NCBI RefSeq assembly: GCF_012489685.1 | Contig: NC_080041.1 | Coordinates: 106,547,760 to 106,611,759, forward strand | Source of the DNA: Lotus japonicus | Taxonomy: Eukaryota > Streptophyta > Magnoliopsida > Fabales > Fabaceae | Length of the DNA: 64,000 nucleotides | Direction: 5' to 3' | Part shown: in pieces, positions 16,571-64,000 of the stretch | Layout: every line of letters begins with the position of its first letter | How positions within the stretch are numbered: the first letter of the stretch is position 1 | Made by a program: the position numbers and the translations under genes | The notes under the pieces: model-generated | The model's database searches: none | Told to the model about the DNA's origin: nothing | What the model saw: only the letters and a program-made list of their open reading frames with translations

Positions 16571-17775
16571 TGTAAGATCAAGTTTTGATCTAGTAGTACA
16601 ACTCTATGTTTTGATGATTACAAGTTAACCTTTTGATATGAACAATTGTGGTACTCTAACGTGTTTTTCTGAGTGTGCTATTTACAGGCTCTGACCTCAA
16701 CTCAATCTCACACAAATCAGAAGCACTGTGTATAAAGAGTGACCCAAGCAACGCTTTCGCATTCACCATGTTCAGTATGAACAGTGGAAAAGCTTCAGAA
16801 GTTCTGAAGCTATACAAACTCTGATGAGGACTCAGTCACTAGAAGCTCTGAAGATCCAGAAAGTCTGATAACCAAGAAACACTGAAGGCTCAGATATTCT
16901 GATGGTGTAGAAGACTCTGAAGATCCAGAAGCTGATTAGTGAAGTTCTGATGTCCAGAAGCAAGATACTCTAAAGACCATGTTCTTCCCTCTGAGTTCAG
17001 AATCAGAAGAAACAATGGTCAGAGGATCTGGGCTTTCCCTCTGACTCTGATCAACCGGCTTCACAAGTTCCAATATGAAGCATTCCCCTGATCAGAAGTC
17101 TCCTAGGTTTAAAGGTCGCGTCGCTATCCAAGTACAAAAGCAACTGTACCTTCCTGACGACCTACCTAACGTTCTCAGCCACAGCAGAAGCTGGATTTTC
17201 CAGAACTGCCCTCCAACGGTAGCATTTCCCATGCATCGCTCAACCCTAATCCTTGGAGTATATAAAGAGGCTGAAGACTGAAAGAAACGGCTAGAAGCAT
17301 TCACATACGCAAGACATATTCAAAATCTTCTAAGTTTTCTTTCATCTGAAATTCATTGAGTTTACTATTAGCTTTTTAGAAGCAAATCTCTTGTAAACAA
17401 TTCTTTGATAAACAGTTTGTTTAGTTCCTTTAGGAGATCAAGGTTGATCGGATCCTAGAGAAGACTAAGAGAGTGAATCTTAGTGTGAGCTAAGTCAGTG
17501 TAATTGTTAGTCACTTGTAGGTTTCAAGTGCAGTTGTAACTCTTACCTGATTAGTGGATTGCCTTCATTCTAAGAAGGAAGAAATCACCTTAACGGGTGG
17601 ACTAGAGTAGCTTGAGTGATTTATCAAGTGAACCAGGATAAAATCCTTGTGTGCTTTTCTATCTCTTATCTTTAGCACTTAAGTTCTCGAAAGATTTGTC
17701 AAAATCTTTAAGGTGGAAGTTTTATACTGAAAACGTTATTCAAACCCCCCCTTTCTACCGTTTTTCATACCTTCA
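16571..17775 (+). repeat. SIRE-A 3' LTR
   Basis: 1,205-bp LTR, TGTAAGATCA...CATACCTTCA, in plus orientation. A TATA box (TATATAAAG) lies at 17259-17267. It joins HSP70 codons of HNT-1 directly at 17776, which marks the true LTR end. Confidence 0.93.
17259..17267 (+). promoter_or_regulatory. LTR TATA box (SIRE-A)
   Basis: TATATAAAG within the LTR, in sense orientation; the likely U3 core promoter of this family. Confidence 0.6.
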
Positions 17776-18454
17776 CCTGGATGAGGACATTATCTTGGTC
17801 GTCTTCGATGGTTGTGTGAACGTCACTCTGTATTTTCGGAATACAAGTGTTCCTTGGAATGAATACAGCCATGTCACCAGTAGAAGTTTCCACACCAAGT
17901 GAATGGGGAGTGACATCCAACAACAAAATATCTTCAAGATTCTCACAATGACTTAAGATAGCAGCCTGGACAGCAGCACCATAAGCAATAGCCTCATCGG
18001 GGTTGATACTCTTGCAGAGGTCCTTTCCATTAAAAAAATCCTGCAACATTGACTGCACCTTGGGGATCCTTGTAGACCCACCAACAAGAACAACATCATG
18101 AATACTGCTCTTGTCCATCTCAGCATCCCTCAAACACTTATGAACTGGCTCCATGCACTTCATGAATAGGTCCATGTTGAGCTCTTCAAACGTGTCACGA
18201 GTGATTGTGGTATAGAAGTCAAGACCTTCATACAATGAGTCAATCTCAATAGTAGTATGTGTAGTGGATGAGAGACTCCTTTTTGCCCTTTCACATGCGG
18301 TCCTCGACCTCCTTAAAGCCCTCGGGTTCCCACTAATATCCTTCTCGTGCTTCCTCTTGAACTCCTCAACAAAATGGTTAACCATCCTGTTATCAAAGTC
18401 CTCACCTCCAAGATGGGTGTCTCCAGCCACTGCCTTAACTTCGAAGACACCCAT
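17776..18454 (-). pseudogene. HNT-1 HSP70, middle part of exon 2, between two SIRE insertions
   Basis: HSP70 segment from just after the FDVSLL nucleotide-binding motif to the start of the substrate-binding domain. It contains [13 protein letters not shown], the third HSP70 signature ([14 protein letters not shown]), [16 protein letters not shown] and the interdomain linker [14 protein letters not shown]. At its 5' side (18454) it was separated from the N-terminal part by SIRE-C, and at its 3' side (17776) from the C-terminal part by SIRE-A. The missing C-terminus, presumably with NB-ARC and TIR as in HNT-2 and HNT-3, should lie left of the window. Within this piece the frame is open. Confidence 0.9.
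18450..18454. repeat. Target-site duplication of SIRE-C, left copy
   Basis: cccat, repeated exactly at 30542-30546 on the other side of the element; the bases are HSP70 codons of HNT-1. Confidence 0.95.
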
Positions 18455-19661
18455 TGAAGGTATGAAAAACGGTAGAAAGGGGGGGTTTGAATAACGTTTT
18501 TAGTACAAAACTTCCACCTTAAAGATTTTGACAAATCTTTTGAGAACTTAAGTGCTAAAGATAAGAGATAGAGAAGCACACAAGGATTTTATCCTGGTTC
18601 ACTTGATAAATCACTCAAGCTACTCCAGTCCACCCGTTAAGGTGATTTCTTCCTTCTTAGAATGAAGGCAATCCACTAATCAGGTAAGAGTTACAACTGC
18701 ACTTGAAACCTACAAGTGACTAACAATTACACTGACTTAGCTCACACTAAGATTCACTCTCTTAGTCTTCTCTAGGATCCGATCAACCTTGATCTCCTAA
18801 AGGAACTAAACAAACTGTTTATCAAAGGATTGTTTACAAGAGATTTGCTTCTAAAAAGCTAATAGTAAACTCAATGAATTTCAGATGAAAGAAAGCTTAG
18901 AATATTTTGAATATATCTTGTGCATATATCTTGCTTCTAGCCGCTTCTTTCAATCTTCAGCCTCTATATATACTCCAAGGATTAGGGTTGAGCAATGCAT
19001 GGGAAATGCTACCGTTGGAGGGCAGTTCTGGAAAATCCAGCTTCTGCTGTGGCTGAGAACGTTAGGTAGGTCGTCAGGAAGGTACACTTGCTTTTGTACT
19101 TGGATAGCGACTTGACCTTTTAACCTAGGAGACTTCTGATCAGGGGAATACTTCATATTGGAACTTGTGAAGCCGGTTGATCAGAGTCAGAGGGAAAGCA
19201 CAGATCCTCTGACCATTGTATCTTCTGATTCTGAACTCAGAGGGAAGAACATGACCTTCAGAGTTTCTTGCTTTTGGACTTCAGAGTTTCCACTATTCAG
19301 CTTCTGGATCTTCAGAGTCTTCTACACCATCAGAACATCTGAACCTTCAGTGTTTCTTGGTTATCAGAACTTCTGGATCTTCAGAGCTTCTAGTGACTGA
19401 GTCCACATCAGAGTTTGTATAGCTTCAGAACTTCTGAAGCTTTTCCACTGTTCATACTGAACATGGTGAATGCGAAAGCGTTGCTTGGGTCACTCTTTAT
19501 ACACAGTGCTTCTGATTTGTGTGAGATTGAGTTGAGGTCAGAGCCTGTAAATAGCACACTCAGAAAAACACGTTAGAGTACCACAATTGTTCATATCAAA
19601 AGGTTAACTTGTAATCATCAAAACATAGAGTTGTACTACTAGATCAAAACTTGATCTTACA
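18455..19661 (-). repeat. SIRE-C 3' LTR
   Basis: 1,207 bp, TG...CA in element sense, preceded in element sense by the PPT at 19662-19675. Confidence 0.95.
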
Positions 19662-19675
19662 ATCTCCCCCTTTTT
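19662..19675 (-). promoter_or_regulatory. SIRE-C polypurine tract
   Basis: Element-sense AAAAAGGGGGAGAT adjoining the 3' LTR. More PPT-like runs follow near 19830 and 20205; one near 20145 has decayed to GGAGGAG. Confidence 0.88.
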
Positions 19676-20402
19676 GATGATGACAAAACTAAGATTTTTG
19701 ATGAACAATTCTTAAACATTAAACTGAATTCACTCAGAGTTTAGAGATATAGAATAAGACTTATCCTGATGTGAATAGTTTATCTTGCTCATTCTGAATT
19801 CAAGTCACTGCTTGATTCTGAACTTAGCTCCCCCTGAATCTAATACTTGATGAAAACGTCAGTAAAGTCTAGATTCTGAGCTAAATGATATAAGAGTTCA
19901 GAGTGAAAAACTTATGACATAGATGAAAAACGAATAATCAGAGCGCATAAGTAATCAGAGTCACGGACAAGGTATCAGAGTCTTGGGTATCAGAGTCAAC
20001 TTAGAATCACTTCAGAAGAAGTGAAATGTATTCCTTGTATTTGCCCAGTGACACATCTATGGTCATGAAGGTGGAACTCTTAAAATCTCCAAAAGAAAAA
20101 TAAATCACACTAACACATCTTACACATCAAAAACTGGGTTTACTCCTCCTTTTTGTCATAAGCAAAAAGCTTGGGGTGTGAAAAACTTAGCTTGAAGTAC
20201 AAGGTACTCCCCCTTAGAGAAGGTCTAAGTTTAAAGAAAAGAAAAACGATGCAAGAATCAGAGTTAGGCGAAATAAATAGAGGAGTTAATGCAAGAGAAG
20301 AAAGTTTACCACCGGTCAAGTGAGTAAAGAGAAGGGTCAGTTACCAAGAACTTAACCTCGAGAAACCGTAGGAGCATTAACTTTCAGAGAGAAAGTGAAG
20401 CC

Positions 20403-20411
20403 TATATAAAG
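20403..20411 (+). promoter_or_regulatory. TATA box of antisense ORF (SIRE-C)
   Basis: TATATAAAG on the plus strand, 53 bases before the ATG at 20464, opposite to element transcription. Confidence 0.6.
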
Positions 20412-20463
20412 CGTTGGAGAGAAAGGTAAGCTTCACACCTCGAACAATTTTCAGTAAAAAGGA

Positions 20464-20856
20464 ATGGCATCATACAACGTAGCACTAGAAGAGCTGAGGA
20501 AGAAGGCCTTTGAAGAGGACTTGTTCCTGAACATCAGGCATCCAGAGGGTACAACGACCATCTCGGAGCTAACACGGACACTGCTGGAAGAGGACCTGCG
20601 TCCAGAGTTGGAGAGAGACCTGAAGGAATTTCTTGCCTTCGTGGAGGAGGTGCAAGAACTCAGCCGGCTTGAACTCAAGCTGCTGGAAGAAAAAGAGATC
20701 TTGGAAGAGAAGCTCAAGACTTCAGAAGAGAGTCTGGAGAGGGATGAGCTAAAGGTCAGCCTTAACAACATCCAGCATGGACTGGAGCGTCTGGAGAAAG
20801 ATAGGTCAGAGCAGCGCCAGGAGTGCAGAAGAATGAAGAGAGATCCTCCATTCTAG
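20464..20856 (+). CDS. Antisense coiled-coil ORF of SIRE-C (130 aa)
   Basis: Complete small antisense transcription unit: TATA box at 20403, ATG at 20464, stop at 20856, AATAAA at 20902-20907. The protein (MASYNVALEELRKKAFEED ... QRQECRRMKRDPPF) is charged and largely helical; residues 45-120 are dense in Leu, Glu, Lys and Arg with heptad spacing. Against the SIRE-B copy there are many third-base changes (for example gaagat/gaggac, ctcaat/ctgaac) and no indel in 390 bases, although SIRE-C's own gag, pol and env-like genes are broken. This pattern fits selection on the antisense protein. Function is unknown; binding to a coiled-coil partner such as Gag or the env-like protein is speculation. 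Confidence 0.75.
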   Translation: MASYNVALEELRKKAFEEDLFLNIRHPEGTTTISELTRTLLEEDLRPELERDLKEFLAFVEEVQELSRLELKLLEEKEILEEKLKTSEESLERDELKVSLNNIQHGLERLEKDRSEQRQECRRMKRDPPF

Positions 20857-20901
20857 ACTTTTTAGAGAAGTAATGTATGATGTAAACAAAAAAAGATTAT
20901 G

Positions 20902-20907
20902 AATAAA
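20902..20907 (+). terminator. Polyadenylation signal of antisense unit (SIRE-C)
   Basis: AATAAA 46 bases after the stop of the antisense ORF; also present in SIRE-B at 6633-6638. Confidence 0.5.
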
Positions 20908-21073
20908 ACGAGTTTAGCAACCATATGTGACACAAGTATATAGATATGCATATATAATCACAAACGAACAAATTAAAAAAAAAAAAAGAAACAGAGTTTA
21001 ACAAAAGGAAAACAAAGTTAACGAAAAAGAAGAAAAAAAAGAAGAGATCCTAAAACTAAGGTTTGTCAGTGCG

Positions 21074-24070
21074 TCACAGAAGTTCCATCATCATGTGCTT
21101 CATCTCAATCAGCATGGATTCATGAGTGTCAAGACGCTGTTCCATGATGTCGAGTCTGGATGAGCTTGTCTGAGTAGAACTGGAAGGAACATTCTGAGCA
21201 GCTTGAGGATCTGGAATGGAAGCAGAAGCAGCAGGAGTAAACACAACTGGTGCAAGTGCTTGGCATCTAAGAGCTTCAGCCTCAGCTTCAAGTCGCTCTG
21301 CCTCAAGTCTGGCTTGTTCAGCTTGAGCTGCTGCAAGAAGTGCAGCTTCTTCTGCTTGTTCTTTCTTTCTCTTGGCTTCTTCAATAGCTTCAAGAAGCTT
21401 ATTTCTCTGTTCTAGTTCATGAAGAGCCACCCTTCTAGCAAACCTTTGCTTGGCAGCCTCAATGCTCTGACTTCCCTCTGCATGCAGGAGCTGCATCATA
21501 ATTGGAACTTGAGCCACTAGCTAAGTGCTCAGATTGTTCCACTCATCAGCCACACTTTCAGCATTCTCACTGAGGTCAGTCTGACCGTGCACATTGCGGA
21601 GCCTCAAGGAGGCTTCATGATAGAAAATATTGATGCACTCAGAGAGAGATGTGGGTTGAAGGTGAGTATAGGGAATTATGGAGAGGTTGGTTTCAGGAGA
21701 GGCTGGGTGATTGCTGCTATGAGCTTCAGAGGCACCTTGTGGAGAACCAATGTTAATCATGGGAGCATTGGGTTCAGAGGTTCCAAGGTGAGGGTCTGAA
21801 GTTTCAACCAGAGGATGAGGTGATCTAACCGAGGATTGGTTAGACACTGAATGTTCGGGTTCAGGTTCTGGTTGAATAGGCTCTTGTTGGTCAGGGACAG
21901 GGTGAGCTTGTTGAACCAAGGGGTCTGCCTCTTGTAAAGGATTAGCCAAGATAGGTTCATCTGGGTCTACTAGACGTTCAGGTCTAGGGCCAGGATATCT
22001 CCTAGGGCTTGGACAAGTTAGGTAATATTCTTCCAAGGTAGACACCTTTTCTTTTCTAACCTCCATGAATTTTCTAATGGATTCAGAGTTATTGGAGGGA
22101 GAAGAATCAGCAACATTGGTTGGGAAGGATACAGGTGTAAAGGCTGTTGAAGAGTCTGTATCCGTGGTTTTGGCAGCAGGACGTTCTGATGTTCTGGGAA
22201 CAGAGTGATCAGACGTTCTAGGTTGTGGTTCTGTTTGATTTGGCTCGGGTTGGTCATGGATGATGGGTTCAGAAGATAATGGGTCGTACGGAATGGTGAG
22301 GAGAGAGGTTGGTTCTTCTGACCTAGAGGGTTGATTCTGAAGCAAATTCCAGAGAGGTGCTTCAGTAGGAGAAGGTTGAAAGAAGGAAGATCTTGGGGAA
22401 TGTGGTGGAGTGGTGGTTTGTGCGGCTGGCTGGGATTCAGGAATAGGAGTGAGGGGATTGGAGGAGTGTTTGAGCATAGCAGAAATAGGGAGTGCATCAA
22501 ATAAATTCAAATCATCATCAGAAGCAAGTGCAGGCTTACTTGAATGTGCTGATGATCGAGTCACTCTGGCAGGAGGTTCAGTCCTTCTGACCATTTCAGC
22601 AGCTGGTTCCACCCGAGTAGGCTTCACCACGATTCTGACTTTCTTCTTCTTCTTCTTTGGAGGACCATCCTCACTATCATTATCATCACCATCATCAGGC
22701 TTTCTCTTCGTCTTCTTGACCAGAGGGACATCAGATTCCTCTGAGGATTCTTCCAGAACCATCTTCCTCTGAGCTTTCTTCTTGGGAGGAGAAGGAAACT
22801 CTGGAGCTGGCGGTAGTCTGCTGACGAAATCATCAAGGTCTATTTCGAATCCTTGAGCCCTGAGGTCTTCAACATAGCATCTGATGGCGTCAGGATGGTC
22901 TGCTTGAGTCCACAGAGGGTAGTCATTCAGAGGCATTCTTCTTCCTCTGATCTCAGAAGATGTGTCTTCATGAGCAGGAGCAATCTTCTTCTGGACCAAA
23001 CCCATCTTCTTCAGAGAGTTTGCAGTGAAGACATCACTGACAATTGTGCTCAAATCCTCTGTGCAACCAGCATTGATCAGATCTTGCACCAGGTTGCTTT
23101 CAATGAGAAAGTCTGAGAGCAGCCTCCCAAAAGGGATATATTTGATTGCAGACTTGATGGAGGCGGTGGTGCGAGACTTCCGGATGCATTCCTTCAAGTA
23201 GGAGAACAGGAAGAAGGGAAGGCAGATCTTCTCCTGATCTTGGATGAAGAACAACATCACCTTCTGGTTGAAGTTGATGTAGTCTGGAGAACTGTCCTTC
23301 GGTCTCTGGTTTATGCAGTTGAGCAGGATCTTGTGCCAGATCCTGAGTTTGGGATGAAGATCCATCACCTTATAACTCGTCTTGCCCGGTTTGAAGGTGG
23401 TGTACAGGGCCTGGTTGACTTTGTCTTTGGTGCTGGGTTTCAGCTTCGATTCCGTCAGTTGGAAACGATACCCATAAGCAGTATCTGCACCCAGCAAGTT
23501 CACGAAGGACTTCTCCGTGATGATGATCTTTCTGCCAAGAATGTAAGAGACCACCTGAGTATCATCGCAGTCGGCGTGCTTCCAGAATTCCTTTACCAGT
23601 TTCTCATACACCGGTCCTCGAAGTCGGTTGAAGTAGTTTCCCCAACCTTGAGCTTGGACTTCAGGACGAAGATCATACCCATTTGCAGCCAGATTGTCGA
23701 GGTCGAATCTCCATTCTGCCAGGACTTGAAGTTCCTCAGGAGCAAATACGCAGTGAACGGCACAGCCCCGTTCTGCAATTGGAACAATCTTCTCTTGAGC
23801 TTGAACTTGTTCTTGTGCCGGGTTTTCAGAGCCCCTTTGACCCGTTGCTAGACCAACTACCATGTGAGGGAACTGAGGTGCATCTGCAGTAGATCTTCTG
23901 GTTTGTCTTACCATTTTGAGGAGGTTGAAGGTTTGAGGTAGAAGATGAAGGTTGAAAGATGAAGAGAGATCGAGAGAGAAATCGAGAAAAAGGCGGTTTT
24001 GAAAAGCAGAGAGAGCGAGAGTGAAAACCGGAAGTGAAAGAGAACGTGTGTGTATAGTGGGTTTTATCAA
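21074..24070 (-). pseudogene. SIRE-C env-like ORF, interrupted by one stop
   Basis: Same gene as at 6795-9800: 'putative plant transposon protein'-like N-terminal region, NLS-like Lys clusters (PPKKKAQRK, PPKKKKKKVR), Pro/Ser/Glu-rich middle and C-terminal coiled coil. A Trp codon has become TAG at 21521-21523, splitting it into 849 and about 148 residues; the frame continues unchanged after the stop. The C-terminal piece keeps the coiled coil. The likely start is the MVRQTRR methionine near 23914 rather than 24070. Confidence 0.85.
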
Positions 24071-24358
24071 ATAACCGTTGTTGATTCAAAAAGCACTTTA
24101 AGATCAACGGCTGAAAATTAAAGATAGATAGTAACAGTAAAATACACAAATCACACACAGGAGATAAGCATATCTACACGCAATCATAACAGACTGTCAC
24201 ACGGGCACAAGGAACTATGCATCAGAAATTCTGACACACATGTTGTTGTCTCAGCGTCAGAGTCAGTACCAGTGGGAACACACACTCTGATTGAGTTACC
24301 TTCTGGACTAGACATCTTCTGATCAAGAAGTATCATGGTCAGAGGTTCTGATCCATCT

Positions 24359-27300
24359 TCACTCTGGACAAAAGTCCATGTTTAGATTTTTCAGAATAAA
24401 ATTAAATCTATCCTCTGCTAAGGGCTTTGTAAAGATATCTGCCCATTGATGGTCAGTATCAACAAACTTCAGAAGAAGTACGCCCTTCTGTACATAATCT
24501 CTAATAAAGTGATACTTTACCTCAATGTGCTTTGCCCTTGAATGCAAGATAGGATTCTTACTCAATGAGATTGCAGCAGTGTTATCACAATAGATTGGGA
24601 TATTGCTCTCAAGGATCTGATAATCCTCCAGCTGATGTTTCATCCAGAGCATCTGAGTGCTGCATATTGCTGCTGAGATATATTCTGCTTCTGCAGTTGA
24701 TAGTGCAATGGTTGATTGCCTCTTGCTTGCCCATGAGACTAAATTGCTTCCCAGAAATTGACAATTTCCGGAAGTACTTTTTCTCTCTGTTCTATCTCCA
24801 GCATAATCAGCATCACAATAACCTGAAAGCTTATACTCTGATGTTTTCTTATACATCAAGCCAAGGTTAGTGGTGCCTTTCAGATACCTTAGGATCCTCT
24901 TAACAGCAGTTAAGTGGGTTTCCCTTGGATCTGATTGGAATCGAGCACATAAATGAACACTAAATAGTATGTCTGGCCTAGATGCAGTTAAGTATAGAAG
25001 TGAACCTATCATGCCACGATAGAGCTTCTGACATACTTTACCACTTATATCTTCTTTTTCCAGAATGCATGTAGGATGCATTGGAGTCTTGGCCACTGTA
25101 GATTCCAGCATATTGAACTTCTTCAGAAGTTCTTTAGTGTACTTGCTCTGATGGATATATGTTCCTTCTGGTGTTTGATCAACTTGTATTCCCAGAAAGT
25201 ACTTTAATTCTCCCATCATACTCATCTCAAATTCAGCCTGCATCATCTCAGAAAATTCTTTGCATAGAGATTGATTAGCAGAACCAAATATAATATCATC
25301 AACATAGATTTGCACAATTAAGATATCATCTTTATAAGTCTTGCAAAAAAGAGTTGTATCTACTTTACCCCTTACAAACTCATTCTCCAGAAGGAATGAG
25401 CTAAGTCTCTCATACCATGCTCTGGGAGCTTGCTTCAGACCGTAGAGTGATTTCTTCAATTTGAACACATGGTATGGTTTCTTTTCATCTTCAAAACCTG
25501 GGGGTTGATGAACATAGACTTCCTCTGAGATATAACCATTTAGGAAGGCACTCTTTACGTCCATCTGATGTAGAACTATGTTGTGATTTACTGAGAAGGA
25601 GATCAACAGTCTGATTGCCTCCAGTCTTGCTACTGGAGCAAATGTTTCAGTGTAGTCTATTCCTTCCTGCTGGCTGTAGCCTTGAGCAACTAGCCTTGCC
25701 TTGTTTCTGACTACATCTCCTTTCTCATTCAGCTTGTTTCTGAATACCCATTTTGTTCCAATAACATGGACACTCTCAGGCTTCTTCACTAAGCTCCAAA
25801 CATCGTTCTTGGAGAATTGATTCAATTCTTCTTCCATGGCCAGAATCCAATCCTTGTCCTGAAGAGCTTCATCTATGGACTTGGGTTCAATTAAGGACAC
25901 CAATCCTTTCAGACTCAACAAGGTCTCTTCAGAGGGTCTGAAGGCAGATATGGTTCTGACTGGTTCGTCTTTGTTGCCCAGAATCAATTCCTTAGGGTGA
26001 GCTGCAGTGATTCTGCTCTTCTTCAGAGTTTGTGAGTTAGAGGGACCAGCTTCTTCCTCTGGTTCATCTTCCTCTGGCTCAGCTTCCTCTGGAGCTTTGC
26101 CTTTGTCAGAAACATTAATGCTTAAATCTGCAAACTTTTCAACTAGCTTTGACTGGTCAGAGTCAAGCTTATCATCAAATCTAACCTGAATAGATTCTTC
26201 AATAGTCTTAGCATCAGTATTATAAAATCTAAAACCTTTAGATCTATCAGAATAACCAAGTAATAGATACTTAGAAGACTTAGCATCAAATTTATGCAAT
26301 CTATCCTTAGTATTGAGAACATAACAAACACAGCCAAAAAGGATGAAAATAAGAAATGTTGGGTTTTATGTTCTTCCACAATTCATAAGGAGTCTTATTC
26401 AGAATTGGTCTCACAGAGATTCTGTTCTGAATGTAACATGCTGTATTTACTGCCTCTGCCCAAAAGTGCTTAGCCATGCCAGTTTCTTGGAGCATGGTTC
26501 TAGCCATCTCCTGAAGAGTTCTGTTCTTCCTCTCAACAACACCATTTTGTTGAGGAGTTCTGGGACAAGAGAAATCATGTGCAATTCCATAGGAATCAAA
26601 CAGACTCTCAAACTTGTCATTCTCAAACTCTCCACCATGGTCACTTCTGACACGCACAATCCTACAAGCCTTCTCGTTTTGCACTTGAGCAATGAAGGTA
26701 GAGAACACAGCATGAGACTCATCCTTGCGGGTTAGAAACTTTACCCATGTCCAGCGGCTATAGTCATCAACGATAACCATCCCATATCTCTTGCCACCTA
26801 TAGACTCAGTTTTCACTGGTCCAAAAAGGTCGATATGCAGAAGTTCCAACGGCCTTGAGGTTGAGACAACATTCTTTGCCTTGAAAGGGACTTTTGTGAA
26901 TTTGCCTTTCTGACATGCTTCACAAAGAGCGTCTGAAGCGAACTTCAGATTGGGTAAGCCCCTGACAAGGTTTAGCTTGCTCAGCTGAGAAATCTTTCTC
27001 ATACTGGCATGCCCTAACCGTCTATGCCATACCCACCGCTCTTCATTAACAGACAGAAGGCACTTCACATTCTGAGCCTCCAACTCAGATAATCTGATCT
27101 TATAGATGTTGTTCTTCCTCTTGCTGTTAAATAGAACAGAGCCATCGATCTGACTTACAGCTCGGCAGGACTTTTGATTGAATATAACGTCATAACCCTT
27201 GTCAGCTAATTGACTTATAGACAATAAGTTATGTGTTAAGCCGTCTACCAATAACACATTATCAATGCATGGACTACTATCTACACAAATAGTACCAGTA

Positions 27301-27464
27301 CCAACAATTTTACCCTTTTCATTTCCTCCAAAGCCAACTTCGCCTCCAGGCTTAAGTTTCAGCTCTCGGAACATACGCTTTTCTCCCGTCATGTGACGCG
27401 AGCATTCACTGTCCAGATACCATGATTGGTGTTTCAGTGGAGCTATCAAGGATATCTGCAACAT
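24359..27464 (-). pseudogene. SIRE-C pol, frameshifted and with altered protease motif
   Basis: Same domain order as 10088-13192. Two breaks: the protease motif reads DSE instead of DSG, the change that also ends gag (27406), and one extra A in a run at 26336-26340 shifts the frame inside the integrase C-terminal region, so 385 and 646 residues are read in different frames. RT with YVDD and RNase H with STAEAEY and ADIFTKPL are otherwise intact downstream. The element would depend on proteins supplied by other copies. Confidence 0.92.
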
Positions 27465-29262
27465 AGATAATCTTGTCCTTAGGTACCCACTTTCTGGGTC
27501 CTCTTTTGTTAGTTACCCCAGAGGTTCTGATCACCTTGGGTGTCTCAACATAATATTTTAAAGGAATATTTGCATGATATTTAGTCATAGAGAAAGATCC
27601 CTTTTTAAGAGGATGTTTAGCAACTTTAGCAGGTACAGGATCAGGCAATATGGTACCAGAGGGAACAAAGCATTCATACAAGGATTTAGCTTTAGACACA
27701 GAAGGCTCATTTCTAATTGGTTTAGAATAGCCAATGCCATGCATTCCATTTCTGCTTACGCCATAGATCATTGAAGCCATTAAGCTTCTATCCACGCTTT
27801 TAGCTAGGAATCTTTGAAAAGACTTTTCATACTTAGATTCATTTCTACAATCAGAGGCATCACAGGCAACAATTTCTTCTAACTTAGCAATCTGGTTCTT
27901 AAGCACAGAGTTAGAATTTATCAAAGCATGATTTTCATTTTTCAAATCAGAAATAATTTTCTCATGTTCAGAAGGAGTCTTGGAGACAGCAGATAAGTTC
28001 TTTTTCAACTTTTTATGCTTAGACAATAAGGATTTATACTTATCCATGATATCAGACAAAGCATGTTTCAGTTCAGAGGTAGAGAAAGAAGCAAATACCT
28101 CATTTTCATCGTCTGAGTTAGGATCTCCTTCTGATTCTGAGTCAGAGTCAACAGCTTCCTTTGACTCTGCTCCTTTGTCTTTGACAATGGCCATGAGTCC
28201 TTGGACTTCACCATCAGAGTCAACATCCTCTGACTCTGATTCATCGAATGTCACCATCAGACTCTTCTTGGTCTTGAAGTGCTTCTTTGGCTTCTTGTCT
28301 TTCTTCAACTTTGGACAATCACTTTTGTAGTGCCCAGATTCTTTGCACTCAAAACATGTGACTTCCTTGATTGAAGACTTCTTCTGGCCTGAGGACTCAT
28401 ACTTTCCTTTTGCCTTTCTAGAGCCTTTGAACTTGCTCTGCCTGTGCTTCCAGATGCGGTTGAGTCTCTTGGAGATCAGAGTCAGCTCATCTTCATCAGA
28501 ATCTTCTGATGCTTCTTCAGATTCTTCTTCTTCAGCTTGAAGAGCCTTTGACTTCTCAACCTTAGCCTTTTCAGATTTGGATTTCAAGGCTATGGACTTT
28601 TTCCTCAGATCTTGCATCTCTGTGCGCTTCAGCTCATGGCATTTCAAAATGCTGATGAGTTCTTCTAAACTCATATTCTCAACGTCTCTCGTGAGCTCTA
28701 TTGAAGTCACCAAGGGCATCCAACTTTCAGGAAGACACCTGATGACCCTTATGACATGATCTTTTGTTGTGTAGCTCTTGTTGAGAGGTCGTATACCAGC
28801 TACAAGCAATTGAAATCTGGAGAACATTTCTTCAATGGACTCATTTGGCTCCATGATGAAGGATTCATACTTTTGGATCAAAGACAATGCCTTTGATTCT
28901 TTGACTTTCTTATTTCCTTCATGAGACATCTTCAGAGTTTCAAAAATGCCTTTAGCAAACTCACGATCTGTAATCTTCTGGTACTCTTCATAGGAAATAG
29001 CACTTAGAAGAATTGCTCTTGCTTTGTGATGTTGTGAGTACAGCTTCTTTTGATCTGCAGTCATCTCTGACCTTGGGATCTTCTTGCCATCTGCATCAAC
29101 TGGACGCTCGTAGCCATCCACAATAATATCCCAGAGATCTGCATCGAAACCCAGAAAGAAACTTTCCAGTCTATCTTTCCAATATTCGAACCTTTGACCG
29201 TCGAACATAGGAGGCTTTGCATTGTAACCATCTCTTTGAGTTTCACTGGTGGTGGCAGCCAT
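27406..29262 (-). CDS. SIRE-C gag, ended early by a point mutation
   Basis: 618-residue Gag with the same start as in SIRE-B ([14 protein letters not shown]), UBN2-type capsid, CCHC knuckle [14 protein letters not shown], acidic tract and coiled-coil region. A Trp codon turned into TGA at 27406-27408 removes the last 18 residues present in SIRE-B. All recognised Gag domains are kept, so particle formation may not be affected. Confidence 0.9.
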   Translation of the reverse strand: MAATTSETQRDGYNAKPPMFDGQRFEYWKDRLESFFLGFDADLWDIIVDGYERPVDADGKKIPRSEMTADQKKLYSQHHKARAILLSAISYEEYQKITDREFAKGIFETLKMSHEGNKKVKESKALSLIQKYESFIMEPNESIEEMFSRFQLLVAGIRPLNKSYTTKDHVIRVIRCLPESWMPLVTSIELTRDVENMSLEELISILKCHELKRTEMQDLRKKSIALKSKSEKAKVEKSKALQAEEEESEEASEDSDEDELTLISKRLNRIWKHRQSKFKGSRKAKGKYESSGQKKSSIKEVTCFECKESGHYKSDCPKLKKDKKPKKHFKTKKSLMVTFDESESEDVDSDGEVQGLMAIVKDKGAESKEAVDSDSESEGDPNSDDENEVFASFSTSELKHALSDIMDKYKSLLSKHKKLKKNLSAVSKTPSEHEKIISDLKNENHALINSNSVLKNQIAKLEEIVACDASDCRNESKYEKSFQRFLAKSVDRSLMASMIYGVSRNGMHGIGYSKPIRNEPSVSKAKSLYECFVPSGTILPDPVPAKVAKHPLKKGSFSMTKYHANIPLKYYVETPKVIRTSGVTNKRGPRKWVPKDKIIYVADILDSSTETPIMVSGQ

Positions 29263-29318
29263 TGTTTTTCACACCGGCCCGGATCACTGAACACTGTTAG
29301 GTGTGGTAATCAGAACTT

Positions 29319-29332
29319 GCGCTCTGATACCA
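29319..29332 (-). promoter_or_regulatory. SIRE-C primer binding site
   Basis: Element-sense TGGTATCAGAGCGC, two bases from the 5' LTR end; initiator-Met tRNA complement. Confidence 0.93.
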
Positions 29333-29334
29333 AT

Positions 29335-31515
<2,181 letters not shown>

Positions 31516-38984: not shown

Positions 38985-39556
38985 CCCAGGTCCTAAAAAC
39001 TAGGACAATTTTTATGAGATCCTTTCCACCATTGACCTTTAAAAACAAAGTTTAGCCATCAAAATATATTAGCCCCACTGACTGATATTAACATCACTTT
39101 GGGAACTTTTGACCACCCTTCTTGACCAGTACCAGATCATGCTAACTTGAAACCAAAATACGAGAACAAAGCCACCATCTGCTTGTGAATGCAAACCCTG
39201 CAACTCCACCCCCATTTTCTTTCACCTAGTTCATATACATGCTTTGAATATGCAAGCGATGTCTGTTATTACAGGCGAATCTTACTATCTTTCCGATAAA
39301 TTGATCTCTTGTCCTGTAAAAAGTATATACAACAACACCTTAATTTTGCTTGATAATTTTCAACGAGAGTTGTGAAAATCGAACTGGACAGACCGGTTTG
39401 ACTGGTTGCATGAATCAGGAACCAGTAAAGTGTCTGGTCCATTTGATAAAATTTAAATTTCAGGAAATTTCATTTGACAAAAATTGTTCAAATAATATAT
39501 TTTTTAAGTGAGATATATACAAATTTAAATGTTTTTAAATTTAAACATAACTTTTT
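38985..39556. other. 3' flank of HNT-2, no gene
   Basis: Includes 39230-39350, which matches 60900-61010 downstream of HNT-3 (for example acatgctttg, tatgcaagcg, aataaattgatctct). This is duplicated-unit flank, with no coding sequence. Confidence 0.6.
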
Positions 39557-40592
39557 TCAAAAATTTAGTAATACGTAACTTAACTGAAAGATTACTACGT
39601 ACCCTTCGTAACGCTCTCCTTTCAAGTTGGAAATATCCCTCAAAGCGTGTGTCCATTCCAGCACTGTCTTAGAATCCTTTCCTAACTCTTTTTCATGTTC
39701 AGCCATGGCTTCACCAGACCTCCCTTTTAGATGCCTTATGTCAGTTGGTTCCACTTCATAAAAAATTGGCAAAACTAACTGTTTCTTCCTCTTCCGACAG
39801 TCAAGAATCTTGACAAGTTCCGTAAGACACCATTTAGAGTCTGCAAAATTTTTAGACAAAACGACAATTGCAAACCTTGATTCTTCAATGGCTTCAAGAA
39901 GTTCCTCAATTGGGGCTCCACCCTCCAATGATTGGTCATCTTTAAAGGTGTAAAATCCCTCCTTGCACAACGCATCATAGAGATGCCTTGTGAAAATCTC
40001 CCGAGTATCCATTCCTCTAAAACTGATAAAAATTTGATAGCGGGCTTTTGAGTGGCTTAGACTAACTAATGATTCTTCCCACTTCTCAAGGGACTTCTTT
40101 TGTAAGGAAGACACCACATCTTTAATTAGACCAGGTAGGCCATTGCATGTAAAAGCAATCTCTTGTGCCATGTAGAATAGATCGGATCGGGGGTTCACAC
40201 CTGAAAGTTTTTGCAGCAGGGACAAAGCCTCATCACCAGATAATGGCTCCAAAGGAATCAAATGGTCACATCCCATGTTGATGCAGTCTGCTTCGTCACG
40301 TGTGGTCAAAAGGACCTTGCACCGTTTCCTCTCATATGGGATGCCTATATCTTGTGGTTTAGACTTTGTTGGAAAATCATCCAAGATAACAAGAGTAGTT
40401 CCATCTTTCCTTTCAAACCCTGAATTTATTTTTATTGCTCTCATGATATCACTGTTATCTCTTTCAAAACGAACATTTAACTTGTTAGCAATTCCTTCTT
40501 GAATGCTCTTGATATCTTGGTTACCGGACACCGTGGGAAATATAACTCTAGGAAAAATCTTTTCGTACTCTTCTATCTCAGCCTGCACTAAG
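39557..40592 (-). pseudogene. HNT-2 C-terminal part: NB-ARC remainder plus TIR
   Basis: Continues HNT-2 after the P-loop, which lies at 55329. It starts in [10 protein letters not shown], then kinase-2 TTLVILDDF (near residue 64 of the open frame), RNBS-B-like KVLLTTRDE and a GLPL-like CNGLPGLI. No ARC2/MHD or LRR follows; the chain passes directly into a TIR domain beginning [16 protein letters not shown] near residue 185, with WCLTEL carrying the Glu that is catalytic in plant TIR NADases. The reading frame here is intact through 343 codons. It is close to 61782-62830 of HNT-3. It is separated from the HSP70 part by about 14.7 kb of nested retrotransposons, so it is not expressed as the original fusion unless from a new start. 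Confidence 0.9.
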
Positions 40593-40597
40593 GTTGT

Positions 40598-40804: not shown

Positions 40805-40810
40805 CCCCCC

Positions 40811-44432: not shown

Positions 44433-44434
44433 TT

Positions 44435-46340: not shown

Positions 46341-46342
46341 TT

Positions 46343-53664: not shown

Positions 53665-53735
53665 TTTCCCGCCGGCGAACGGTCATACACCTGCTCCAGC
53701 TAATCGCCAGTACGAAGGGATCGCTCTCGCCGCTT

Positions 53736-53831
53736 GTGGACTTGTGGACTCGCCGGCTCGGGTTGCTCGCCGAGCCAGTGCACGTGGACTTGTGGACTTG
53801 CCGGCTCGGGTTGCTCGTCAAGCCAGTGGAC
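53736..53831. repeat. 48-bp tandem duplication
   Basis: Two near-identical copies starting gtggacttgtggact; each contains the gtggact word that also begins the LTR. Confidence 0.88.
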
Positions 53832-53893
53832 TGGGTAACTGAAAATGCTAGTTTCCTTTTGCTCACGCCACGTTGGCGACGTAGTTTGCTTTT

Positions 53894-54924
53894 GAGTAAA
53901 GTACACTCACCCCCCTCAAGGTTTATTAGAATTACACTCCACCCCATTCTTATCTAAAATCTACACCCCACCCCATTTTATATAGAGGCAAATTTAGTGA
54001 CGAAAAATATTCTTCATTAGTAATTAGTTATTATTTAAATTGTTAATCAATAATTTCAAAAAATATTTTCAATATAATCCAATAAATTTAAAAATGTAAA
54101 CATTACAGTCCCCCTCACTCTCTCAATCGTGTTCTTCTTCCGCAAATTCACAATGCAAATTTTGCAATAGCACACCTGACCGGTTGACAAACCATATCTC
54201 AAACACAGTGAAACATGCTTGTGTTTTCATATTTGGTAATAATTCAATTTGAATTAAAATAATCTCTTTATACCTCTAATTTTCAAAATTGGATTGTAGA
54301 CCCTAAAAGCAACACAAATGGGTGAAGAAAATTGAGAAACAAAATTAAGAAATATGAACTGGATCAGAGGTTATTAGAACCCTCAACGGTGCGGTGGAGC
54401 ACCGTTTTTAACAAAATCCAACAACATCTTAAACCAACAGAGCGTTCACTCACAACTTAAAGGGGTAAAGTTCACAAGAAGTAGTTGAACAAGTGGCTTT
54501 GGGGATGTGCGATTCACGTTCTGGGGTTCAGGTCGCAACAAAACTTTGAGGCATGGTGGTGCCATGGGGTTTCACATTCTGGGACGGTGGCCACCGTGTT
54601 AAAGGGAGAAAAGGCTTGGTGGTGAGCGTTTGTGGTGAGAAATATGATTTGGAGATAGATAAGACGTGGACTCAACAGACAGAGTTGATGGTTTTTTTAA
54701 ATTTAATTCAGTAAAATTATTTTCATAAATTAATGTATGATATTGTATATGCATTAAATTTATTTAAATTTTAACTAATTAGTAATTATTTTTTATTAGT
54801 GACGAATTTGTTTTCATCACTAAATTTTGCCTTTATAAAAAATAGGGTGGAGTGTAGATTTTAAAAAAGAATGGGGTGGAGTGTCATTTTTGCAAACCTT
54901 GAGGGGGGTGAGTGTATTTTATTC
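53894..54924. mobile_element. MULE-4 inside the Tat element
   Basis: 1,031 bp with about 95-bp inverted ends (GAGTAAAGTACACTCACCCC at left, GAATAAAATACACTCACCCC complement at right) and a perfect 9-bp duplication tttgctttt (53885-53893, 54925-54933). Interior AT-rich; a short hairpin aacggtgc...gcaccgtt near 54387-54408. No transposase. Confidence 0.92.
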
Positions 54925-55035
54925 TTTGCTTTTCTTTTCTTAAGCCATGTTGGCAGCTCAAATCCCAGTGTATTATAGCACATGTGAAGGCATTTAAAAG
55001 ACACACTTAGCTCTCATACTTCGAGCTCGGTGTCT

Positions 55036-55328
55036 TGTGGACTAGTGGACTGGGCGAGCCCCTAGAGGGGCAACGCCCAGCATATAGCCCGCCCCGAGGC
55101 GGGGCCCTGGCCTTAAATTGGGCCTTGATCTTGGAGGCCCAATTGGCCCAATAGGTAGTACCCGAGCTCTATAAATAGGAGGTAGTTATCAGTTGTAAGG
55201 GACTTTTGGCTCATTTGATGAAATCACGCATAAAATTCAGCATTCTCTCTCTCATTCTCATTCTCTCTCTAGCACAATCCACCACTCTCTAGGTACTATA
55301 CCTTTCTTTAATGTTCATTGCTAGAACA
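55036..55328 (+). repeat. Tat element 3' LTR
   Basis: 293 bp, like the 5' LTR except for one base and an 8-bp duplication at its start (tgtggactagtggact). No purine-rich tract precedes it, which is unusual. Confidence 0.85.
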
Positions 55329-57648
<2,320 letters not shown>

Positions 57649-60699: not shown

Positions 60700-61010
60700 T
60701 ATAGCAGGTATATTATAAGTTTGCTTATTTAAAAAAATGCACTTTAAAAAACTACTCATCTCCAACAAATTTATTACTCATGAGTAAATAATATTAAAAA
60801 TGTGTAAATTACAACCAAAATCCATTTCTGACCTAAAAACCATGTGCAGCAAGCTCTGCCTTATGTTGCACTCGCTTGAAGAGAAGCTGAAGTCTTTCAT
60901 CTAGTTCATGTACATGCTTTGTATATGCAAGCGGTGTTTGTTATTATGGGCAAATCTTATGATCTTTCCAATAAATTGATCTCTGTCCCTGTAAAAAGTA
61001 TATGCAACAC
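60700..61010. other. Duplicated 3' flank of HNT-3
   Basis: Matches two blocks beside HNT-2 (37020-37230 and 39230-39350), which there are separated by MULE-3 and other sequence. Evidence that the repeat unit includes downstream DNA. Confidence 0.65.
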
Positions 61011-61781: not shown

Positions 61782-64000
61782 CTACCTTTCGTAATGCTCT
61801 CGTTTGAAGTTAGAAATGTAGAAATGTTCCCCTTTCAATTGGGAAATATCACTCAAAGCCAGTGTCCATTCCAGTACTGTCTTAGAATCTTTTGCTAACT
61901 TTTTTTCATGTTCAGCCATAGCTTCACCATACCTCCCTTTTAGATGCCTTATGTCGGTTGGTTCCACTTCAACAAAAATTGGCAAAACCAATTGTTTCTT
62001 CCTCTTCCGGCAGTCAAGAATCTTGACTAGTTCTTTAAGACACCATTTAGAGTCTGCAAAGTTTTCCGACAAAACAACAATTGCAAACCTTGATTCTTCA
62101 ATGGCTTCAAGAAGTTTCTCAATTGGGGCTCCACCCTCCAATGCTTCATTATCTTTGAAGGTCTCAAATCCCTCTTTGCATAAAGCATCATAGAGATGAT
62201 TTGTGAAAGTCTCCCGAGTATCCTTTCCTCTAAAACTGATAAAAATTTGGTAGCGGGCTGTTGAGTGGCTTAGACTGACTAATGATTCTTGCCACTTCTC
62301 AATAGACTTATTTTTCAAGGAAAACGCCACGTCTTTAATTAAACCCGGTAAGCCATTGCATTTAAAAGCAACATCCTGTACCACTTTAAATAGATCAATC
62401 TGGGAGTCAACGCCTGAAAGTTTTTGTAGCAGGGAAAAAGCTTCCTCATTAGATAAGGGCTCGAGAGGAATCAAATGATCACATCCCATCAAGATGCAGT
62501 CTGTCTCATTACGTGCAGTCAAAAGGAACTTGTACTGTTTACTATTATAAGGAACACCTAATTCTTGCAGTTTAGACTTCGACGGAAAATTATCCAAGAT
62601 AACAAGAGTAGTTCGATCCTTCCTTTCTAATGCCAAAATTATTTTCATTATTCTCGCACCATCATTGTCATCTTTTTCAAACACGTTCAAGGAGCTAGCA
62701 ATTCCCACTCGAATGCTCTTGATATCTTGATTCTCAGACACGGTGAGAAATACCACTCTACGAAAAATCTTTTCATACTCTTCTATCTCAGCTTTCAGTA
62801 ATGCTGTTTTACCAGAGCCTCTCTTTCCATACAATCCAAGTACATAGCAATTATCATCTTTTAGTCCCTTTATAATTTTCTGTGAAGCCACTTTTGTGGA
62901 GTTGAAATAATACCCAAAGTTTCCGGAAGGAAAGGATTGTAAACTTGAACTAGGAGTTGGTAATGCAATCTGATCATGGCAAGTATCATGTTGTACTTGT
63001 GCCTCCAAGTGTTGATATGGACTATCTTTTGAAGAATTGTACTTCTCCCCCTCCTGCACCATCTTCTCCAAGGCTTTTTTGGCATCGACCTTCTTCTTGT
63101 GCTCCTCATCCTCGACCTTGTACTTCTCCGCCTCCTGCACCATCTTCTCAATCTCCTCTTTCGAGAGTCTCCCCTCGTCATTTGTAATAGTGATATTGTT
63201 TTTCTCACCAGTAGTCTCATCTTCAGCAGAGACCTTCAGGATACCATTCTCATCAATGACAAAGCAAACATTGATCTGAGGAACACCCCTTGGAGCAGGA
63301 AGAATGCCACAAAGCTCAAATTTACCTAACAAGTTGTTGTCGCTGCTCCTTGTTCTCTCACCCTCGTACACCTTGATCAACACACCAGGCTGGTTGTCTG
63401 AGTTGGTTGAGAAAACCTGCTCCTTCTTGAATGGGATTGGACAGTTCCTTGGAATCAGGACAGTCATGACACCACCAGCAGTTTCCACACCAAGTGAAAG
63501 GGGAATGACATCCACCAACACAAGATCCTTAACCTTCTCATGACTCTCATGACTCAAGATAGCAGCCTGAATAGCAGCTCCATAAGCAACAGCCTCATCT
63601 GGGTTGATGCTCTTGCAGAGCTCCTTCCCGTTGAAGAAATCCTGCAACAGCTGCTGCACTTTTGGGATCCTAGTAGACCCACCAACAAGAACAACATCAT
63701 GGACACTGCTCTTGTCCATCCTAGCATCCTTCAAACACTTGTCAACTGGCTCCATGCACTTCGTGAAGAGGTCCATGTTGAGCTCTTCAAACTTTTCACG
63801 AGTGATATCAGTGTATAAGTCAACACCTTCATACAACGAGTCAATCTCAATGGTGGTCTGTACAGTGGATGAGAGAGTCCTCTTTGCCCTTTCACATGCG
63901 GTCCTCAACCTTCTTAAAGCCCTCGGGTTCCCACTAATGTCCTTCTCGTGCTTCCTCTTGAACTCCTCAACAAAATTGTTCACCATCCTGTTATCAAAGT
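61782..64000 (-). CDS. HNT-3: HSP70-NB-ARC-TIR fusion protein, 5' part outside window
   Basis: One uninterrupted frame of about 739 codons in the window; it enters at FDNRMVNNF, so the HSP70 ATPase N-terminus lies to the right. Numbering from the Met at 63986: HSP70 signature [14 protein letters not shown] near 95-108, linker [15 protein letters not shown], substrate-binding domain to about 300 with a shortened, charged lid and no EEVD. Then [18 protein letters not shown] and P-loop [14 protein letters not shown] (about 383), kinase-2 TTLVILDNF (about 460), RNBS-B-like [12 protein letters not shown]-like CNGLPGLI (about 541); no MHD or LRR. A TIR domain from [16 protein letters not shown] (about 577) holds WCLKEL with the Glu used by TIR NADases. 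The NB-ARC style is CNL-like, the TIR TNL-like. An immune sensor or signalling role is inference. A GTAGGT donor-like site overlaps the stop, so more exons are possible. Confidence 0.88.

What the first reader, a model, noticed from the sequence alone, without database searches (positions are those of the whole stretch)
61782..64000. HSP70, NB-ARC ATPase and TIR domain in one continuous reading frame
Seen directly: no intron, stop or frameshift separates the HSP70 substrate-binding domain, a P-loop/kinase-2/GLPL module and a complete C-terminal TIR. Plant immune receptors normally carry TIR at the N-terminus, and HSP70 acts on NLRs only as a separate chaperone. I know of no characterised protein with this order. 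A chaperone covalently joined to a nucleotide switch and a TIR with its catalytic Glu suggests a self-chaperoned or misfolding-sensing immune executor. That role is inference.
Basis: partly seen in the sequence, partly recalled or inferred. Interest (0 to 1): 0.92.

Follow-up and report, generated by a model that had tools for sequence, protein, structure and literature searches.

The report
Heat-shock chaperone fused to immune TIR
Bird's-foot trefoil and clovers carry a family of genes that join most of a heat-shock chaperone to a shortened immune-receptor switch and a TIR immune-signalling domain, and the chaperone part has changed most at the surface that helper proteins, and one known pathogen protein, use to grip it.

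Summary
Confirmed. The frame lies in Lotus japonicus and carries HSP70, NB-ARC and TIR. Genome DNA shows a three-exon gene: exon 1 beyond the window, exon 2 with all three domains, and a conserved last exon at 60988-60901; the stop at 61782 is intronic. Nineteen models carry all three modules, 6 Lotus and 13 Trifolium. Their NB-TIR parts form one clade whose two halves each hold both genera, so the fusion predates their split. Acceptor: a legume CC-NB-TIR gene; donor: canonical cytosolic HSP70. NB lacks ARC2/MHD, HSP70 lacks lid and EEVD, TIR keeps its catalytic Glu. New: fused HSP70s conserve ATPase and docking residues, yet published J-domain contact sites are among the most variable (D477 site first of 536), with dN/dS 1.15 against 0.34 overall in Lotus. 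Diverged unfused HSP70s also lose this face, with less variety. Best reading: an immune sensor with integrated HSP70 bait and TIR output; transcript, partner and activity are untested. New variant of a known kind; no paper found in the searches made.

The parts
61786..64000 (-). Exon 2 of the HSP70-NB-TIR gene (copy A), the part inside the window; outside it, exon 2 begins at window coordinate 64498 and exon 1 (residues 1-73) runs from 64902 to 64683
63024..63998 (-). HSP70 residues 241-565: end of the nucleotide-binding domain, interdomain linker (63527-63507), SBD-beta; no lid, no EEVD
   Evidence: Pfam; PDB alignment
63258..63260 (-). Codon of residue 487 (V), aligned with the D of plant HSP70s and with DnaK D477 (J-domain salt bridge); most variable HSP70 position of the fused family
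62883..63038 (-). Junction and linker between SBD-beta and NB; resembles the repeat linker of the Lotus CC-NB-TIR P0026 (by eye)
   Evidence: sequences
62253..62882 (-). Partial NB-ARC (NB+ARC1): P-loop GKRGSGKT 62828-62805, kinase-2 TLVILDNF 62609-62586, GLPG; no ARC2/MHD
   Evidence: Pfam; AF2; Foldseek
61821..62252 (-). TIR domain, catalytic Glu of WCLKEL at 62033-62031
60901..60988 (-). True last exon (28 codons and the stop at 60903-60901); intron 61785-60989
55332..57645 (-). Copy B, 5' part: HSP70 exon 1 (57645-57430) and exon 2 (57126-55332) down to the P-loop, with a frameshift and at least one in-frame stop; pseudogene
39229..40597 (-). Copy B, 3' part: rest of NB, TIR (to 39584) and last exon (39321-39229), cut off from the 5' part by LTR elements
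17774..31512 (-). Copy C: broken HSP70 pieces (31512-31297, 30994-30538, 18451-17774); no NB or TIR match beside them

Best explanation
A canonical cytosolic HSP70 replaced the coiled-coil of a legume CC-NB-TIR protein in a common ancestor of Lotus and Trifolium (supported by trees and exon structure). The product is a TIR immune protein whose N-terminal HSP70 (ATPase plus SBD-beta, without lid) serves as an integrated bait or sensor. A pathogen protein that engages host HSP70 at its J-domain face also engages the fused HSP70; this changes its ATP-driven NBD-SBD arrangement or brings copies together, and the C-terminal TIRs assemble and act as NADases that signal through EDS1. The P-loop module would serve assembly rather than act as a full NLR switch. 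Shown: architecture, family, ancestry, retained and lost residues, J-face variability. Inferred: expression, partner, activation, TIR activity, pathway.
For: 19 three-module models in four species. One NB-TIR clade with both genera in each half. Fused HSP70s group together next to canonical HSP70s. Catalysis (4 sites) and docking (16 sites) are conserved; of 13 pocket/arch sites 7 are invariant and the two arch positions vary. Five published J-contact sites: mean entropy 2.16 against 0.46 elsewhere; permutation p about 1e-4 for the four that are invariant in canonical HSP70s. Lotus DNA: dN/dS 1.15 at these sites against 0.34 for HSP70 as a whole, 0.39 for NB, 0.28 for TIR. Sites that touch the HPD motif mostly stay: R167 20/20, L391 20/20, Q378 18/20, P419 17/20. 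TIR Glu in 7 of 7 Lotus DNA copies. The P. syringae effector HopI1 binds host HSP70 in a J-domain-dependent way and stimulates its ATPase (PMC8982422, PMC8150971, passages). Five fused upstream regions lack the three-unit heat-shock element found in 4 of 5 canonical ones.
Against: No transcript, protein, NADase or binding data. The J-face idea arose after seeing the variable sites. A dN/dS of 1.15 over 5 codons fits lost constraint as well as diversifying selection. J-face change is not specific: 33 of 89 sites changed in 18 diverged control segments, and 25 of 26 unfused diverged Lotus HSP70s lack the D at the D477 site. The interdomain linker is also somewhat more variable (0.83, permutation p 0.05). 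No ARC2, MHD or LRR. Of 11 Lotus copies with 71% identity or more only 5 read open through all parts.
Confidence: 0.42

Rival explanations
1. Client sensor: freed from host J-domain co-chaperones and without a lid, the HSP70 binds exposed hydrophobic peptides of misfolded or foreign proteins, and binding triggers the TIR.
For: Peptide-pocket residues mostly conserved (mean entropy 0.35, not raised), ATPase and docking residues conserved; the arch pair is altered (A to V/C, Y to N/S/H) as if peptide choice had changed. Charge at the J-contact sites is reduced in 20 of 20 fused models.
Against: Lidless Hsp70s hold peptides weakly (recalled); without J-domain drive the ATP state would dominate (recalled); variability is concentrated on the J face, not in the pocket.
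Confidence: 0.2
2. Relaxed by-product: a fusion made in a duplicating array, now decaying, with sites drifting where J-domain contact is no longer needed.
For: About half of the Lotus copies are broken; fused HSP70 dN/dS 0.34 against 0.03 in canonical, whose synonymous sites are near saturation; J sites near neutrality; other diverged HSP70s lose the face too.
Against: Both halves of the tree keep three-module proteins in both genera; dN/dS 0.28-0.39 in NB and TIR; catalytic residues invariant; J sites change faster than the HSP70-NB linker (8.0 against 2.4 changes per site).
Confidence: 0.2
3. Modulator: the fused protein lacks ARC2 and LRR and acts as a helper or brake, for example by joining TIR assemblies of other immune receptors or by sequestering HSP70 partners.
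For: No ARC2/MHD/LRR; kinase-2 second acid N in 17 of 20; TIR-only and TIR-NB proteins with adaptor roles are known (recalled).
Against: The TIR active-site Glu is retained; nothing here shows a partner.
Confidence: 0.12
4. Annotation artefact: HSP70 and NB-TIR are separate genes whose frames happen to run together.
For: No RNA seen here; some Trifolium models join FtsZ pieces, so gene models in these clusters can be over-joined (Pfam column).
Against: The frame is continuous in DNA within one exon, and the same junction recurs in models of four species and in 5 intact Lotus copies.
Confidence: 0.05

Closest known systems
Legume CC-NB-TIR proteins (e.g. P0035, P0031 Lotus; P0033 Medicago; P0244 Cicer; P0334 Lotus, UniProt I3S288)
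   Same: Same NB-then-TIR order and truncated NB; 45-53% identical in NB and TIR (P0030-P0039); similar C-terminal tail in the Lotus ones; Lotus P0026 is the row next to the HSP70 clade
   Different: N-terminus is coiled-coil-like (read by eye; long linker in P0026), not HSP70
NLRs with integrated domains (RRS1-WRKY, RGA5/Pik-1-HMA, BED-NLRs)
   Same: An immune NB protein carrying a host domain of a kind that effectors target
   Different: No LRR, no ARC2/MHD; the integrated domain is a near-complete ATP-driven chaperone in N-terminal position, with the TIR at the C-terminus
TNL / TIR-NB immune receptors (RPV1, RUN1, ROQ1, RPP1)
   Same: TIR best matches RPV1/RUN1 (43-45% identity, Foldseek E 7e-14) and has the catalytic Glu
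   Different: TIR is C-terminal behind a CNL-type NB; the best structure matched over the NB is the wheat G10 resistosome (rank 21), the first TNL matched over the NB is rank 44
Canonical plant cytosolic HSP70
   Same: 85% identity over residues 1-560; same intron position; ATPase, docking and most pocket residues
   Different: No lid or EEVD; J-domain face altered; dN/dS about ten times higher; no three-unit heat-shock element in 5 upstream regions

Membership tests
Plant NLR (NB-ARC-LRR) | NB-ARC with P-loop, kinase-2, GLPL | tested here: met
   Pfam NB-ARC 81.5 bits against cut-off 23.5; motifs read
Plant NLR (NB-ARC-LRR) | ARC2 with MHD | tested here: not met
   TIR follows the partial NB-ARC match directly (residues 822/823)
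Plant NLR (NB-ARC-LRR) | C-terminal LRR | tested here: not met
   No LRR family listed at E 1 for the frame or at 1e-3 for the full protein; the gene ends at the short last exon
NLR with integrated decoy (NLR-ID) | Carries a domain homologous to an effector target | tested here: met
   HSP70 present; host HSP70 is a HopI1 target (PMC8982422, PMC8150971 passages)
NLR with integrated decoy (NLR-ID) | The domain binds an effector and triggers immunity | not testable with these tools
   needs bench work
Plant TIR NADase | TIR fold | tested here: met
   Pfam E 1e-45; AF2 pLDDT 88 for NB-TIR and Foldseek to RPV1/RUN1 TIR
Plant TIR NADase | Catalytic Glu in the WCLxEL motif | tested here: met
   E in 7 of 7 Lotus DNA copies and in 17 of 20 models; the other three (P0023, P0028, P0029) lack that part of the TIR. 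Role of this Glu recalled; cf. the RUN1 E100A entry
Plant TIR NADase | NAD+ cleavage | not testable with these tools
   none
Cytosolic HSP70 chaperone | ATPase core, docking and peptide-pocket residues | tested here: met
   4 of 4 catalytic sites invariant; docking mean entropy 0.20 (16 sites); pocket 0.35 (13 sites, 7 invariant, two arch positions altered)
Cytosolic HSP70 chaperone | Helical lid and EEVD tail | tested here: not met
   homology ends at residue 554-565
Cytosolic HSP70 chaperone | Acidic J-domain contact sites | tested here: not met
   Net charge at five sites -1 to -3 in 20 of 20 fused against -4 in 63 of 63 unfused
Legume CC-NB-TIR | NB then TIR, and the RLxIxS-like tail | tested here: met
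Legume CC-NB-TIR | N-terminal coiled-coil | tested here: not met
   HSP70 in its place; that the relatives' N-termini are coiled-coils was read by eye

The most novel reading that the evidence does not exclude
HSP70-NB-TIRs are a dedicated class of immune sensors that watch the J-domain docking face of host HSP70: an ATP-driven chaperone used as bait, in an arms race with J-domain effectors, with its conformational cycle directly gating TIR assembly in place of the missing ARC2/LRR switch.
Probability: 0.25. Interest if true: 0.92.

Novelty: new variant of a known kind. Interest (0 to 1): 0.74.

Why it matters
If right, plants have wired the central HSP70 chaperone, a known effector target, directly to a TIR output, in a protein without the parts thought to be needed for NLR switching. 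That would let one ask how a TIR is controlled without ARC2 or LRR, which face of HSP70 pathogens exploit, and whether J-domain effectors are recognised by plants. Even without the mechanism, a family of chimeras of CNL-type NB, TNL-type TIR and HSP70 that predates the Lotus-Trifolium split, and whose members are often deposited under names such as 'heat shock cognate 70 kDa protein', is easily missed in NLR and HSP70 surveys.

Tried and rejected
Considered and set aside. (a) Horizontal transfer between Lotus and Trifolium, suggested by 89% identity in NB-TIR and by no listed Medicago, Vicia or Cicer fusion: the HSP70 parts of the same pair (P0001, P0002) are only 80-82% identical, which a recent transfer would not give; not formally tested. 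(b) Decay of the NBD-SBD docking interface: the published docking residues are conserved, so I turned to the J-domain face. (c) FtsZ as a real further domain: FtsZ pieces occur in Trifolium models, none in this window; read as neighbouring exons joined, not proved. (d) Heat-inducible promoter: no three-unit element upstream.

Led nowhere: tRNA and Rfam scans. The first structure model (whole protein) was poor in the HSP70 part (mean pLDDT 67), so variable sites were not mapped in 3D. Script 63 ended with a formatting error after its main output; the last part was redone. Literature searches showed no paper on HSP70-NB-TIR; one search listed only 15 of 7,290 papers and told nothing. Only open-licence full texts are held and supplements could not be read; PMC12787737 reports 1226 integrated domains (abstract and section 2.3 seen), so HSP70 may be listed in its supplements.

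Weak points of my own test: the J-face hypothesis was formed after seeing the ranking; contact residues then came from two papers. DnaK-to-plant numbering was mapped by motifs recalled from memory, agreeing with residue names in the papers. E206 is T in plant HSP70s, and PMC10349383 calls E206 and D211 non-conserved; D211 was left out for lack of a clear partner. K70 (catalysis) and D326 (docking) were not scored. Canonical synonymous sites are near saturation (dS 1.17), so the 0.03 is rough.

Full report
WHAT IS THERE. The minus-strand frame 61782-63998 is open over 738 codons and runs off the window. Pfam finds HSP70 (1-325), a partial NB-ARC (373-582) and a TIR (583-726). A protein search places the window in Lotus japonicus: the window's own protein is a 1006-residue model, P0001, on a contig of 137,250,648 bases, the length also given for named L. 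japonicus proteins. In the held assembly (554 Mb) the window lies at G000:C1:106547760-106611759; C1 is there 137,247,279 bases, so the two versions differ slightly. From genome DNA the gene has three exons: exon 1 (residues 1-73; window coordinates 64902-64683, outside the window), an intron in the codon of residue 74, where canonical Lotus HSP70 genes are split too, exon 2 (64498-61786) with the rest of HSP70, NB and TIR, and a last exon at 60988-60901 reached by GT...AG splicing. The TAG at 61782 lies in the second intron. The last exon recurs as ...RLHIQSMY(M/T/I/V)N at the end of several relatives from both genera.

WHAT IS MISSING. HSP70 homology stops at residue 554-565, so the helical lid and EEVD are absent. 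The NB-ARC match stops at profile position 227 of 248 and the TIR starts at the next residue; there is no ARC2/MHD, and no LRR family is listed. Kinase-2 reads ILDN in 17 of 20 non-redundant fused models and ILDD in 3. The TIR keeps the WCLKEL glutamate in 7 of 7 Lotus DNA copies.

THE FAMILY. One search gave 152 proteins at E 1e-20 or better (120 listed, from the 7988 candidates sharing most words). Of the first 56, which I dissected, 19 carry all three modules: 6 Lotus, 13 Trifolium (pratense, repens, subterraneum). Six of the 19 models lack part of the HSP70 N-terminus (P0004, P0008, P0013, P0014, P0015, P0021) and P0011 has half a TIR; five more (P0007, P0022, P0023, P0024, P0027) hold only a scrap of one module. 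No Medicago, Vicia, Cicer, Pisum or Glycine fusion is among the listed rows, although NB-TIR relatives without HSP70 from Medicago, Melilotus, Vicia, Cicer, Lathyrus and Abrus are (order checked for those in the tree); clusters of the database show one name each. In the NB-TIR tree (43 rows, 19 of them labelled HSP70-fused) the fused proteins form one clade (100/100), with one Lotus protein without HSP70 (P0019) inside; both halves (95/90 and 96/93) hold Lotus and Trifolium. The fusion therefore predates that split, about 34 My in one estimate for Lotus and Medicago (PMC4881053, passages; I recall older dates elsewhere). The next row is Lotus P0026, a CC-linker-NB-TIR; its repeat linker resembles the HSP70-NB linker, which suggests that HSP70 took the place of the coiled-coil (by eye). 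Fused HSP70s form one group beside canonical HSP70s and apart from the diverged Lotus array (SH-aLRT 93, quick method; similar, where the two unlabelled rows inside belong to the T. pratense fusion P0127). Trifolium P0016 and P0017 pair an HSP70 of one half with an NB-TIR of the other, so modules are exchanged.

ORIGIN OF THE PARTS. By sequence the NB matches CNL and RNL structures (up to 39 bits), while the NB of the TNL Roq1 aligns at 6 bits; only the top three alignments were shown. By Foldseek on a good NB-TIR model (pLDDT 88, 54 sequences) the best match over the NB is the wheat G10 resistosome (rank 21) and the first TNL matched over the NB is rank 44; the TIR matches RPV1 and RUN1. The protein is thus a three-way chimera: canonical HSP70, CNL-type NB, TNL-type TIR. 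Two canonical HSP70 genes (C1:106708219 and 106733703) lie in the same region, about 96 and 121 kb from this gene.

GENOME NEIGHBOURHOOD. Eleven NB-TIR matches of 71% identity or more, this one and copy B included, lie in C1:105.78-106.67 Mb (counts are lower bounds). Seven fetched loci have HSP70, NB and TIR in order (L039-L045); five read open through all parts, and two carry one stop each. Others are broken or partial, among them copy B; copy C has HSP70 pieces only. Copy B is split inside its P-loop codons by two LTR elements with LTR pairs 99% and 100% identical, and has a frameshift and at least one stop upstream.

SELECTION. Pooled over 7 Lotus copies, dN/dS is 0.34 for HSP70, 0.39 for NB and 0.28 for TIR (0.36 and 0.31 in the 5 intact ones), against 0.03 for 5 canonical Lotus HSP70s, whose dS of 1.17 is near saturation. 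Between Lotus P0001 and T. subterraneum P0002 the TIR is 93% identical, NB 86%, HSP70 80-82%; the module that is normally the most conserved is here the fastest.

THE J-DOMAIN FACE. I compared 20 non-redundant fused HSP70s (from 22 models with most of the domain; P0024 and P0027 dropped as near-copies) with 63 unfused HSP70s (those of 640-662 residues among the 71 ids P0165-P0235; mostly named land plants, some from unnamed sources) over 536 positions. Published DnaK residues that position the J-domain (E206, E217, D477 from PMC8215388, passages; D208, E209, E217 for eukaryotes from PMC10349383, passages) map to residues 219, 221, 222, 226 and 487. Their mean entropy is 2.16 bits against 0.46 elsewhere (Mann-Whitney p 1.2e-4; permutation among canonical-invariant positions p 1e-4, n = 4; ranks 7, 21, 43, 15 and 1). 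Position 487 (D477) is the most variable of all 536: D in 63 of 63 unfused, D or E in 3 of 20 fused. Docking residues (PMC4595643, PMC12406271, passages), catalytic residues and the peptide pocket are not raised (0.20, 0.00, 0.35); the interdomain linker is somewhat raised (0.83, p 0.05). The residues that touch the HPD motif mostly stay: R167 20/20, L391 20/20, Q378 18/20, P419 17/20. The effect is present in Lotus (6) and Trifolium (14) separately, and net charge at the five sites is -1 to -3 in 20 of 20 against -4 in 63 of 63. On a tree built without these sites they change 8.0 times on average against 2.4 for the HSP70-NB linker, 2.3 for NB and 2.5 for TIR columns. In Lotus DNA their dN/dS is 1.15; in windows of two residues around eight published contacts it is 0.73 against 0.32 for the rest; 0 of 400 random codon sets reached the window pN.

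RESULTS AGAINST SPECIFICITY. Eighteen similarly diverged HSP70 segments from other proteins also changed 33 of 89 of these sites (72 of 100 in the fused set), 12 of 18 keeping D at the D477 site against 1 of 20 fused; four control proteins (P0128, P0137, P0141, P0151) changed at least four of five. Among 26 unfused Lotus HSP70s that are 66-73% identical to canonical, mostly in the same array (28 fetched; L058, canonical-like, and L076, incomplete, left out), 25 lack the D at the D477 site, 19 having A, and 21 have K at D208; yet there the pattern is closer to fixed and dN/dS at the sites is 0.44, or 0.20 in the windows. So loss of the J face recurs in diverged HSP70s, while the variety is the peculiarity of the fused ones. 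Neutral release and diversifying selection are not separated by these numbers.

MECHANISM. Most likely the HSP70 is an integrated bait. HopI1 of P. syringae binds cytosolic HSP70 in a J-domain-dependent way and stimulates its ATPase (PMC8982422 and PMC8150971, passages). A fused HSP70 with ATPase and docking intact could register such an engagement and pass it on to the TIR. The rival client-sensor model is favoured by the conserved pocket. Steps not shown: expression, protein, partner, assembly, NADase, EDS1 dependence. Upstream of the five fused genes examined (234 to 1000 bases available) no three-unit heat-shock element was found, against 4 of 5 canonical genes, which fits a role outside the heat response, weakly.

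NOVELTY. Seven searches of the open full-text library showed no description of this order. Term searches of the main texts of PMC4759884 and PMC12787737 found no HSP70, and the table of species-exclusive NLR domains in PMC11734081 lists FtsZ C-terminal and DnaJ entries but no HSP70 for T. pratense. Public gene models exist under names such as 'heat shock cognate 70 kDa protein', so the genes are deposited; the architecture, its age and the J-face pattern appear undescribed within those limits.

Noticed in passing
G000:C1:105.27-106.93 Mb (outside window; L051-L057, L059-L076): 25 fetched unfused, strongly diverged HSP70 copies (66-73% identical to canonical, nearly all without stops) with a nearly fixed altered J-domain face (mostly T-K-G/D-K/E-A) lie around the fused genes; an unusual HSP70 amplification in its own right.
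   Followed up: partly
P0037, P0026, P0019 (Lotus): Other N-termini on the NB-TIR cassette: two MSP/VAP-like domains (P0037), a coiled-coil with a long repeat linker (P0026), a second partial NB (P0019); the NB-TIR unit seems to accept different sensors, if these models are right.
   Followed up: partly
P0002, P0007, P0022, P0023, P0024, P0029, P0041 (Trifolium): FtsZ pieces or names on these models; probably neighbouring FtsZ fragments joined; none found in this window.
   Followed up: partly
40598-46053 and 46057-55328: Two LTR elements side by side inside copy B's P-loop, with LTR pairs of 207 bp (99% identical) and 284 bp (100% identical): recent insertions.
   Followed up: partly
6795-9815 and 21521-24085: Two related-looking long minus-strand frames (1006 and 854 codons) beside copia-like polyproteins; retroelement-associated genes of unknown role.
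   Followed up: no
P0236, P0238, P0246, P0260, P0306: Melilotus officinalis NB-TIR-type proteins are deposited under the name 'nodulation protein'; the basis of the name is unknown.
   Followed up: no
P0016, P0017 (Trifolium): HSP70 from one half of the family combined with NB-TIR of the other half: exchange of modules between paralogues.
   Followed up: partly
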